A stretch of 64,000 nt of DNA from a bacterium (GTDB taxonomy: Bacteria; Vulcanimicrobiota; Vulcanimicrobiia; Vulcanimicrobiales; Vulcanimicrobiaceae). Location: the NCBI GenBank assembly GCA_021790935.1, contig JAJYFL010000003.1:169001-233000 (forward strand), given 5' to 3'. The position numbers were made by a program, and so were the translations under genes. Below the pieces are notes generated by a model that saw only the letters and a list, made by a program, of their open reading frames with translations, searched no databases and was not told where the DNA came from. Shown here one piece after another: positions 11,547 through 47,844 of this stretch (within the stretch, counting starts at the first letter, position 1; each line of letters begins with the position of its first letter).

Positions 11547-11696
11547 CGTGCGTGGGTAAGGGGGCCGTTGCACGAGCGGCTGTGACCGACGAGCGAAGCC
11601 AGGATGGCGAGAGCGAGGAGGCACAGCAGTAGGAGCGCAGCCCGGAGGGCGGAGCGACGAACGGCGCTCGTGCAACGGCCCCCTTACCCACGCACG
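11547..11696. repeat. Hairpin repeat element, copy 1 (32-bp perfect arms, 86-nt core)
   Basis: Arms 11547-11578 and 11665-11696 are perfect reverse complements over 32 bases and enclose an 86-base core (11579-11664). The core is nearly identical to that of the copy at 23363-23512, but the outer ~23 bases of the arms are unrelated; only the inner ~9 bases (GCACGAGCG) are shared. Within the core, GCTGTG near the start can pair with CACAGC further in. The element lies between convergent genes (the lipoprotein and fliR), so it could serve as a two-way terminator, but no T-run follows. Open frames across it are low-complexity and not credible. Confidence 0.85.
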
Positions 11697-19494: not shown

Positions 19495-19660
19495 TAGGAG
19501 TTTGTCTGACTTGAGCGCGTTTCCGTCTCCGGGTCGCTTTTTGCCGAATACATCGTTGCTCATCAGTCACGAAGCTACGGCTTCGCTCCTTCTTCGCGCC
19601 TCGTCTTCGAACAAAAATCGCCTCCGGATCCAAAAACGGCCCAAGTCAGACAAACTCCTA
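19495..19660. mobile_element. MITE-like element, copy 1, with TAGGAG terminal inverted repeats
   Basis: A 166-base element ending in perfect 19-base inverted repeats: TAGGAGTTTGTCTGACTTG at 19495-19513 and its reverse complement at 19642-19660. The outermost TA on both sides could be a duplicated target, as made by IS630/Tc1-mariner-type transposases. Its interior shares with the copy at 42825-43045 a stretch containing CGTTGCTCATCAGTCACG and a GAAGC-tacg-GCTTC hairpin. It carries no transposase. Its right end supplies the TAG stop of the upstream gene (19658-19660). It separates that gene from flgE. Confidence 0.85.
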
Positions 19661-23017: not shown

Positions 23018-23073
23018 CCAAACCAGCACTCGCCCTTCGCCCTTCGCCCTTCGACAAGCTCAGGGTGACACGG
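23018..23073 (+). repeat. Left flanking direct repeat (contains CCCTTCGACAAGCTCAGG)
   Basis: This 56-base stretch matches 23518-23567 base for base apart from one six-base indel after CCAAACCAGC. It holds three CCCTTCG units and the dispersed motif CCCTTCGACAAGCTCAGG followed by GTGACACGG. The two copies bracket the array at 23102-23512 in direct orientation. Confidence 0.85.
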
Positions 23074-23101: not shown

Positions 23102-23512
23102 CGGCGCTCGTTATGCGACGGTCCCGCGCGAGGGGCGAGGAGGGTGCGGCACGAGCGGCTGTGACCGACGAGCGAAGCCAGGATTGGCGGAGCGAGGAAC
23201 GGCGCTCGTTATGCGACGGTCCCGCGCGAGGGGCGAGGAGGGTGCGGCACGAGCGGCTGTGACCGACGAGCGAAGCCAGGATGGCGAGAGCGAGGAGGCA
23301 CAGCAGTAGGAGCGCAGCCAGGATGGCGGAGCGACGAACGGCGCTCGTTATGCGACGGTCCCGCGCGAGGGGCGAGGAGGGTGTGGCACGAGCGGCTGTG
23401 ACCGACGAGCGAAGCCAGGATGGCGAGAGCGAGGAGGCACAGCAGTAGGAGCGCAGCCAGGATGGCGGAGCGACGAACGGCGCTCGTGCCACACCCTCCT
23501 CGCCCCTCGCGC
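23102..23512. repeat. Tandem array of the hairpin repeat, ending in an inverted arm (copy 2)
   Basis: Three direct units begin GGCGCTCGTTATGCGACGGT near 23102, 23200 and 23339. The first is ~98 bases and lacks ~40 bases; the second and third are ~138 bases. The last unit forms a hairpin element: arms 23363-23394 and 23481-23512 are perfect 32-base reverse complements around an 86-base core (23395-23480). That core differs from the 11.6-kb copy at only a few bases, although the arms differ. Open frames in all six frames here are Arg/Ser-rich repeats and not credible genes. The block fills the gap between trpG and the DAHP synthase promoter. Confidence 0.85.
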
Positions 23513-23517
23513 GCGCA

Positions 23518-23567
23518 CCAAACCAGCCCTTCGCCCTTCGCCCTTCGACAAGCTCAGGGTGACACGG
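23518..23567 (+). repeat. Right flanking direct repeat (contains CCCTTCGACAAGCTCAGG)
   Basis: Partner of 23018-23073, in direct orientation, starting CCAAACCAGCCCTTCG. It ends one base before the trpG stop codon on the opposite strand, so the array abuts the gene end. Confidence 0.85.
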
Positions 23568-39613: not shown

Positions 39614-39679
39614 GACGCGTGCCGTGCGTTCGGGAGGATTGCAAACGGACCTGCGTTTGCGCTAGGCCTTGCCTCTTCG

Positions 39680-39701
39680 CCCTTCGGCAGGCTCAAGGTG
39701 A
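39680..39701 (+). repeat. Dispersed intergenic repeat (degenerate copy)
   Basis: CCCTTCGGCAGGCTCAAG, a diverged copy of the CCCTTCGACAAGCTCAGG family, in the 140-base gap between the phosphoesterase gene and ftsY. Nothing else is recognisable in that gap. Confidence 0.6.
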
Positions 39702-39752
39702 GGCGGCGAACGCGAATCACCACTCGGGTGACGGGGACCGCGCGAGAACCCG

Positions 39753-42796: not shown

Positions 42797-42824
42797 CTTC
42801 GGGTAACCGTGCCGGGCAGCGGGC

Positions 42825-43045
42825 TAGGAGGCTGTCGGCGTTAAGCACGTTTCCATCTTTGGGCCACCTTTTTCCCGAATACTTCGTTGCTCATCAGTCA
42901 CGAAGCTACGGCTTCACTCCCATTCCGCACGGAAGCGGAGGTGCCGCGCAGCGCAGGATGCGCGCTGGCGCGGCTTCTTCGCGCCTCGTCTCCGAAGAAA
43001 ATTCGGCGCCAAATCTGAAAACGGCTCAACTCCGACAGCCTCCTA
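42825..43045. mobile_element. MITE-like element, copy 2, with TAGGAG terminal inverted repeats
   Basis: A 221-base element with 18-base terminal inverted repeats, TAGGAGGCTGTCGGCGTT at 42825-42842 against the complement of 43028-43045, one mismatch. The interior shares CGTTGCTCATCAGTCACG and the GAAGC-tacg-GCTTC hairpin with copy 1, and has about 55 extra GC-rich bases. The outer TA could be a duplicated target. No transposase. Like copy 1, its right end forms the TAG stop (43043-43045) of the gene upstream, and it separates that gene from the next flagellar gene. Confidence 0.85.
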
Positions 43046-43381
43046 GGCCGTGACGTCGATGAAGTGGGCGCCGCCGCCGGCAAGGCCCAGCGGCCCGGTG
43101 GCCTCAGGCGGCTCTTCGCGAGAGGCGCCCTGCCGGCGCTGCCCCGGCGAGCCATCTGTGTCGTCGCGTTCGGGATCGTGGTCCTCCCGGGCGCGCACGC
43201 GATTGCCTTCAGCCTTGCCCGGCTCGTTGACGGACTCTTCTCGCTGCTCGAACTGCGCCGCAAACGCCGACTGGGCGGCCTGCTGCGCCACTTGCGGCGC
43301 ATTTTGTGCGTTGCCCAAGACTGCCGCATTCTGCGGAGCGGCGATGTACGCGAGCTGGAGGTCTGCCGGCCGGATGGCCAT
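43043..43381 (-). CDS. Small flagellar-operon protein (fliA-adjacent)
   Basis: A 112-residue Gln/Arg/Glu/Asp-rich protein. The N-terminus is helical (AAPQNAAVLGNAQNAPQVAQ), the middle is charged and probably disordered (VNEPGKAEGNRVRAREDHD), and the end GGGAHFIDVTA resembles the HIDIRI-type C-terminus of small proteins encoded after sigD in Clostridia-like clusters. The function of that family is unknown. GGGGAGAG-like sequence precedes the ATG. The stop is the TAG at the edge of the MITE-like element. It lies 23 bases after fliA. Confidence 0.6.
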   Translation of the reverse strand: MAIRPADLQLAYIAAPQNAAVLGNAQNAPQVAQQAAQSAFAAQFEQREESVNEPGKAEGNRVRAREDHDPERDDTDGSPGQRRQGASREEPPEATGPLGLAGGGAHFIDVTA

Positions 43382-47572: not shown

Positions 47573-47720
47573 TGCCACCGGGCCGCGCCACCACATCGGT
47601 TTGCGCCGATCGGCGGCGATCGTGCTGCCTGGAGCGTGCGATCGCCGTGCGGCGGTTCCTACGATCGCTCCTACGGCGACGCGGCACCGTGATGACCCTG
47701 CGCGCGCCCTTCGTCCTTCG

Positions 47721-47744
47721 CCCTTCGACGAGCTCAGGGTGACA
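47721..47744 (+). repeat. Dispersed intergenic repeat (CCCTTCGACGAGCTCAGG type)
   Basis: Another copy of the family, preceded by a CCTTCG doublet as at the 23-kb copies. It lies ~150 bases before hppA. The rest of the 324-base gap (47573-47896) holds a terminator-like hairpin (see next entry) and no gene I can support. Confidence 0.75.
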
Positions 47745-47844
47745 GGGCCGGTGGGATAGGCTCAGGGGCCTGACGGGCGAAGGCTGGACCGCAAAAAGGT
47801 GGCAGGAGTCGTTGGGGTAGGGCTCCAAGGAGAGCGGTCGTCGT

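What the first reader, a model, noticed from the sequence alone, without database searches (positions are those of the whole stretch)
11547..11696. Hairpin repeat with constant 86-nt core but different, perfectly complementary 32-bp arms at two loci
At 11547-11696 and 23363-23512 the core (86 bases each) differs at only a few positions, yet the enclosing arms differ over about 23 of 32 bases. In each locus the two arms are exact complements. Arm sequence has changed between loci while pairing, arm length (32) and core length (86) stay the same. That suggests either selection for a structured RNA/DNA hairpin, or a process (template switching or a mobile cassette) that builds an inverted copy of whatever flanks the core. 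I know no named element with this design.
Basis: seen in the sequence. Interest (0 to 1): 0.75.

Follow-up and report, generated by a model that had tools for sequence, protein, structure and literature searches.

The report
Repeated double-hairpin CsrA-sponge-like RNA element
The two hairpins belong to a large family of intergenic RNA elements, up to 24 per genome across the bacterial class Eremiobacteria, whose two GGA-tipped hairpins look like decoys for the RNA-binding regulator CsrA; this would be a multi-copy relative of a known but untested RNA family (TwoAYGGAY) in a phylum where no such RNA was known.

Summary
The hairpins are real, but the design is not nameless. They are members of a dispersed family found in 84 of 117 genomes of the class. 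The core folds into a three-way junction with tandem G-A motifs and two hairpins ending in A(N)GGAX loops, the loop type bound by CsrA/RsmE (PMC4005645). Covariation is massive: 29 of 30 pairs change on both sides, 96% of cells pair, 0 of 500 shuffles match. Only Rfam's TwoAYGGAY (RF01731), a predicted CsrA-binding RNA, matches; one copy scores 43.6 bits against a threshold of 43. In the stem next to the core, mismatches on the GGA strand are G-U rather than A-C, 83:9; the bias disappears more than 10 nt further out, 23:24. So the proximal stem and core are under RNA selection, while the long outer arms look like the product of a DNA-level process such as template switching. Sister species suggest that cores are exchanged by gene conversion while arms stay locus-specific, which would explain 'constant core, different arms'. 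CsrA binding and transcription are inferred, not shown. One genus without detectable csrA keeps a few copies, which weakens the CsrA reading.

The parts
11547..11578 (+). left arm of copy C10a (32 nt)
   Evidence: exact complement of 11665-11696; in sister genome G051 the same arm carries one mirrored change, GGGTAAGG to GGGGAAGG
11579..11664 (+). 86-nt core of C10a: three-way junction with two GGA hairpins and tandem G-A motifs
   Evidence: R1 match 115.7 bits over 11564-11679; fold -108.2 kcal/mol, z -13.3
11579..11627 (+). hairpin 1 of C10a, loop AGGAT at 11601-11605 on a GCC/GGC stem
11629..11662 (+). hairpin 2 of C10a, loop CGGAG at 11643-11647 (the other locus has AGGAT: a compensated pair change)
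11665..11696 (+). right arm of C10a
23107..23215 (+). tandem unit 1 of C10b: degenerate, one hairpin only, no right arm
   Evidence: R1 25.7 bits, sequence
23241..23356 (+). tandem unit 2 of C10b: full core, left arm, no right arm
   Evidence: R1 108.3 bits, 139-nt tandem unit
23362..23394 (+). left arm of C10b unit 3 (33 nt)
   Evidence: pair I3
23395..23480 (+). core of C10b unit 3, both loops AGGAT
   Evidence: R1 121.2 bits over 23380-23495
23481..23513 (+). right arm of C10b unit 3
   Evidence: pair I3
23023..23073 (.). flanking direct repeat (CCCTTCGACAAGCTCAGG type), left of the C10b element
   Evidence: family D3; the element is absent and a single diverged copy remains at this site in sister genome G050
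23517..23567 (.). flanking direct repeat, right of the C10b element
   Evidence: family D3

Best explanation
The element is a structured RNA of the TwoAYGGAY type, read from the GGA strand, and most likely works as a CsrA decoy. Its two hairpins present A(N)GGAX loops on short C-G-closed stems, suited to one CsrA dimer, held on a rigid three-way junction by a long outer stem; each transcribed copy would titrate CsrA away from mRNA leaders. Shown here: the family, the conserved structure, the RNA strand, the GGA loops, the partial TwoAYGGAY match, and a csrA gene in this genome and most relatives. Inferred: transcription, CsrA binding and titration. Copies sit between genes, mostly next to gene 3' ends, in either orientation. 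Constant cores inside different arms are best explained by gene conversion of the functional core between copies, with each locus keeping its own arms. The proximal stem is kept by RNA selection; the long distal arms probably owe their perfection to template switching or arm-to-arm correction during DNA replication (inferred).
For: Family: 77 of 99 genomes of the GTDB family and 84 of 117 of the class have R1 matches, up to 24 in one genome. Structure: 96.1% of cells paired against 70.7% in shuffles, 734 cells with both sides changed against 152, covariation score 0.650 against 0.172; slides of 1-3 columns give 0.06-0.09. Strand: model pairs show 165 G-U against 8 A-C; an unbiased arm alignment gives 83:9 in the proximal 12 nt; the bias is the same whether tandem neighbouring genes run with (35:3) or against (36:1) the GGA strand. 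Loops: GGA in 119 and 111 of 124 copies, full A(N)GGAX in 99 and 73; the looped-out N and X vary, as RsmE structures allow (PMC4005645). TwoAYGGAY: best Rfam match in 7 of 20 short loci, right strand, full length, one over threshold; 5 of the 7 RF01731 matches in 117 genomes fall on R1 elements. CsrA: P0001, Pfam E 6.7e-26, present in 81 of 99 genomes. Core conversion: C10a in sister genomes G050 and G051 has a one-hairpin core in the same arms, while G000 has a two-hairpin core identical over 104 nt to its C9 copy. Arms: mirrored changes between orthologous arms include transversions that cannot pass through G-U.
Against: No transcription data; no sigma-70-like promoter excess upstream of the element compared with the mirrored downstream flank. 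Copies lie as often antisense as sense to tandem neighbours, so read-through from neighbouring genes cannot express all of them. Genus g14 (G041, G042) has no detectable csrA, with fliW directly followed by flagellin in G042, yet keeps 4 and 1 copies with GGA loops. Co-occurrence with csrA is weak (43/49 against 3/6 genomes, Fisher p 0.049, not corrected for phylogeny), copy number does not depend on FliW (p 0.24), and genus g12 has csrA but no copies. TwoAYGGAY itself has no experimental proof of CsrA binding in the papers I read. Some second loops lost the motif (CACGATG in about 10 copies).
Confidence: 0.6

Rival explanations
1. A non-autonomous mobile or REP-like repeat: the hairpin is needed for spreading (single-stranded DNA or RNA intermediate), it survives mainly at gene 3' ends because it does least harm there, and the GGA loops are recognised by an unknown mobility protein rather than CsrA.
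For: Many copies in random orientation; near-identical cores at unrelated sites; hugging of gene 3' ends and scarcity between divergent genes (5 of 87); absence at one orthologous site in G050; GTAG-like motif before hairpin 2 resembles REPs; copies kept in a csrA-less genus.
Against: Y1 transposases occur in only 4 of 99 genomes; no target-site duplications were seen at the loci inspected by eye; the empty G050 site can equally be a deletion between flanking direct repeats; strong G-U bias and fixed A(N)GGAX loops are not needed for a DNA hairpin.
Confidence: 0.22
2. Bidirectional transcription terminator or 3'-end protector: the long hairpin at gene ends stops or shields transcripts, and the loops are incidental.
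For: 82 of 87 copies with both neighbours called abut at least one gene 3' end (30 convergent, 52 tandem); very stable fold.
Against: A terminator needs no conserved GGA loops, tandem G-A motifs or strand-specific G-U pairs; no run of U follows the right arms inspected.
Confidence: 0.1
3. The arms are maintained purely by RNA-level compensatory evolution, without a special DNA process.
For: 13 of about 19 mirrored changes between orthologous arms are transitions that can pass through G-U (hand tally of pairs); G-U excess near the core.
Against: No G-U excess more than 10 nt outside the R1 match (23:24); mirrored transversions in young ortholog pairs; one mismatch in a 30-45 bp helix should be almost neutral.
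Confidence: 0.25

Closest known systems
TwoAYGGAY RNA (Rfam RF01731)
   Same: Two hairpins with AYGGAY-type loops, tandem G-A pairs, an external stem of poorly conserved sequence, predicted CsrA-binding (PMC4333381)
   Different: Reported from Clostridiales, gamma-proteobacteria and human gut samples (PMC2864571); here a different phylum, high copy number, GC-rich core, long locus-specific arms; most copies score below the Rfam threshold
Csr/Rsm sRNAs (CsrB, CsrC, RsmX, RsmY, RsmZ)
   Same: A(N)GGAX loops on C-G-closed stems (PMC4005645); RsmX also duplicated in Pseudomonas brassicacearum (PMC7911923)
   Different: No Rfam match to these families; two loops in one compact three-way junction instead of a string of hairpins with a terminator; dispersed in many copies
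REP/BIME palindromes with RAYT transposases
   Same: Dispersed intergenic hairpins in both orientations, GTAG before hairpin 2 (comparison from general knowledge)
   Different: Longer, covarying, with GGA loops; no Y1 (RAYT-type) transposase in most carriers
Template-switch-made RNA hairpins (Monttinen and Loytynoja 2022, PMC8794818)
   Same: A DNA mechanism that creates and repairs perfect stems in RNA genes
   Different: Here proposed for very long arms around a gene-converted core; not proven

Membership tests
TwoAYGGAY (RF01731) | Score at or above the Rfam gathering threshold (43 bits) | tested here: inconclusive
   One copy (L107) 43.6 bits, another 37.0, others 25-35; the window's own two copies gave no listed match
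TwoAYGGAY (RF01731) | Two hairpins with AYGGAY-type loops | tested here: met
   GGA in loop 1 of 119/124 and loop 2 of 111/124; the ANGGAX or AGGAX forms in 99 and 73
TwoAYGGAY (RF01731) | Tandem G-A pairs and an external stem of variable sequence | tested here: met
   GA/GA internal loops in both hairpins and at the outer stem base; variable arms; definition from PMC4333381
CsrA-sequestering sRNA (functional class) | csrA in the same genome | tested here: inconclusive
   Present in the window's genome and 81 of 99 relatives; not found in genus g14, which still has copies
CsrA-sequestering sRNA (functional class) | Transcribed and bound by CsrA, relieving repression | not testable with these tools
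   No expression or binding data for these organisms
Csr/Rsm sRNA Rfam families | Match to CsrB, CsrC or Rsm models | tested here: not met
   No match up to E 5-10 in 32 loci
REP element with RAYT transposase | Y1-type transposase in the genome | tested here: not met
   4 of 99 genomes; this genome has only partial or stop-broken matches
Transposon-derived MITE | Conserved terminal inverted repeats and target-site duplication | tested here: inconclusive
   Arms are not shared between loci across the family; some copies in G005/G006 have arm ends like TAGGAGYCTGTCGG; target-site duplications were not searched systematically

The most novel reading that the evidence does not exclude
A bacterial class uses a spreading repeat as a distributed regulator: dozens of dispersed CsrA-decoy RNAs per genome, with functional cores homogenised by gene conversion and hairpin arms built locally by template switching, so that copy number and location tune the CsrA pool.
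Probability: 0.3. Interest if true: 0.8.

Novelty: new variant of a known kind. Interest (0 to 1): 0.58.

Why it matters
RNA antagonists of CsrA are established mainly in gamma-proteobacteria, and many bacteria with CsrA have none known (PMC4333381, PMC4894983). A conserved double-GGA RNA in most of a class of another phylum would show that RNA control of CsrA is wider, and gives TwoAYGGAY, an orphan family since 2010, a second well-populated branch with hundreds of copies for testing. The arms are also a clear natural case for asking whether long RNA stems are kept by selection or by DNA template switching, because the G-U bias fades with distance from the core.

Tried and rejected
REP/RAYT: Y1 transposases in 4 of 99 genomes. 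Known Rfam family at threshold in the window: none. Own sigma-70 promoter: no excess upstream against the mirrored downstream flank. Trade-off with FliW, the protein antagonist of CsrA: copy number does not differ between fliW+ and fliW- genomes or genera. Read-through 3'UTR element: rejected as the only mode, because sense and antisense tandem contexts are equal, 24 against 28. The automatic ortholog tally was contaminated by the tandem copy, so only pairs with both flanks matching, and those read by eye, are used. The gene calls come from a simple hexamer model trained on this window and are approximate.

Full report
Observation. Both loci are as described, with corrections. The arms are exact complements (32 and 33 nt) around 86-nt cores. 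Shuffled windows never give such repeats. The arms differ at 13 of 32 positions, not 23. The cores differ at two positions, which form one base pair (C-G against A-T) closing the GGA loop of hairpin 2. The second locus is a tandem of three units, of which the first two lack a right arm and the first has a single hairpin.

Family. The genome (an Eremiobacterota MAG by its relatives) holds further copies on C9, C15 and C33. A first BLAST found the core in 66 of 99 genomes of the family. A covariance model, R1, built from 21 copies finds it in 77 of 99 genomes of the family and 84 of 117 of the class, including three families, with up to 24 copies per genome.

Structure and strand. All copies fold alike: a long outer stem, a three-way junction, and two hairpins each carrying GA/GA internal loops and a short GCC/GGC stem with an AGGAT-, ATGGAC- or CGGAG-like loop. 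On 111 distinct rows, 29 of 30 pairs have changes on both sides and 96.1% of cells pair, against 70.7% in shuffles; slid structures collapse. That alignment was fitted to the model, so the strand test was repeated with a neutral arm alignment that treats all mismatches alike: in the proximal 12 nt the GGA strand has 83 G-U against 9 A-C mismatches; outside the match 66 against 37; more than 10 nt outside 23 against 24. The RNA strand is therefore the GGA strand, and pairing is selected near the core but not detectably in the outer arms. The bias is the same next to genes of either direction. These counts are not corrected for shared ancestry.

Identity. No Rfam family matches the window at threshold, but RF01731 TwoAYGGAY is the recurrent best match to the element in relatives: 7 of 20 short loci, correct strand, full length, one at 43.6 bits against a threshold of 43. 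Across 117 genomes, 5 of the 7 RF01731 matches coincide with R1 elements; R1 finds nothing in L178, the one of the other two that I checked. The authors of PMC4333381 proposed TwoAYGGAY as a CsrA-binding RNA, noting the paired CsrA motifs, tandem G-A pairs and a poorly conserved external stem. RsmE structures define the high-affinity site as an A(N)GGAX loop directly on a C-G-closed stem with variable N and X (PMC4005645), which is what the loops show (GGA in 119 and 111 of 124; A(N)GGAX in 99 and 73). CsrA is encoded in this genome next to fliW and in 81 of 99 relatives.

Caveats to CsrA. Genus g14 has fliW but no csrA found by two searches; in G042 fliW is followed directly by flagellin, and in G041 no CsrA-like frame lies near fliW. 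It keeps 1 and 4 copies. Genus g12 has csrA and no copies. Copy number shows no relation to fliW. So CsrA binding is the best-supported function but not established.

Context and expression. Of 122 distinct copies, 118 lie between predicted genes. Where both neighbours were called the arrangement is 30 convergent, 52 tandem (24 sense, 28 antisense) and 5 divergent. The element thus sits at gene ends without orientation preference. In the window, C10a lies between a Vgb-lyase-like gene and fliR, which converge on it; C10b lies between DAHP synthase and a glutamine amidotransferase gene, antisense to both. No upstream promoter signal was found.

Why cores match while arms differ. In sister species the C10a arms are conserved with one mirrored T:A to G:C change, but the core there has a single hairpin; in this genome C10a carries a two-hairpin core identical over 104 nt to the C9 core. 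This suggests core replacement by gene conversion inside locus-specific arms. Orthologous arms show mirrored changes at C9 (4 mirrored, 1 single), C10b (3, 1), C10a (1, 1) and C15 (0, 1), three of them transversions (read by eye; C9 and C15 also). Template switching in replication is a known way to create and correct such stems (PMC8794818) and fits the unbiased distal arms, but compensatory selection is not excluded.

Verdict. A real, widespread, high-copy structured RNA family; a new variant of TwoAYGGAY, probably a CsrA decoy; the arm puzzle has an ordinary likely solution (gene conversion plus template switching). No step had to be referred.

Noticed in passing
window 19495-19660 and 42820-43050: A second, unrelated palindromic repeat family (ends TAGGAG...GTCTGAC / GTCAGAC...CTCCTA) with dozens of matches in each sister genome.
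   Followed up: no
window 23023-23073, 23517-23567, 39656-39706, 47697-47747: Short repeats of the CCCTTCGACAAGCTCAGGGTGACA type, two of which flank the C10b element and could drive its deletion, as the empty site in G050 suggests.
   Followed up: partly
G050:C32:922-8688 (L192): About 7.8 kb of extra sequence lies inside the orthologous C10a element in G050; it may be a mobile-element insertion or an assembly effect.
   Followed up: no
G047 loci L097, L108, L135, L137, L142, L144: In G047 the elements occur as close pairs in opposite orientation (minus then plus), a composite arrangement that recurs at several of its loci.
   Followed up: no
L009 1471-1583 (G000:C33:34406-34518): A divergent copy in this genome whose second hairpin, TTTCACAGGATGTGAAA, is close to the CsrA SELEX consensus RUACARGGAUGU without the R.
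   Followed up: partly
L201, L202 (G042, G041): Genus g14 has fliW without a csrA gene nearby, an unusual separation of the pair.
   Followed up: partly
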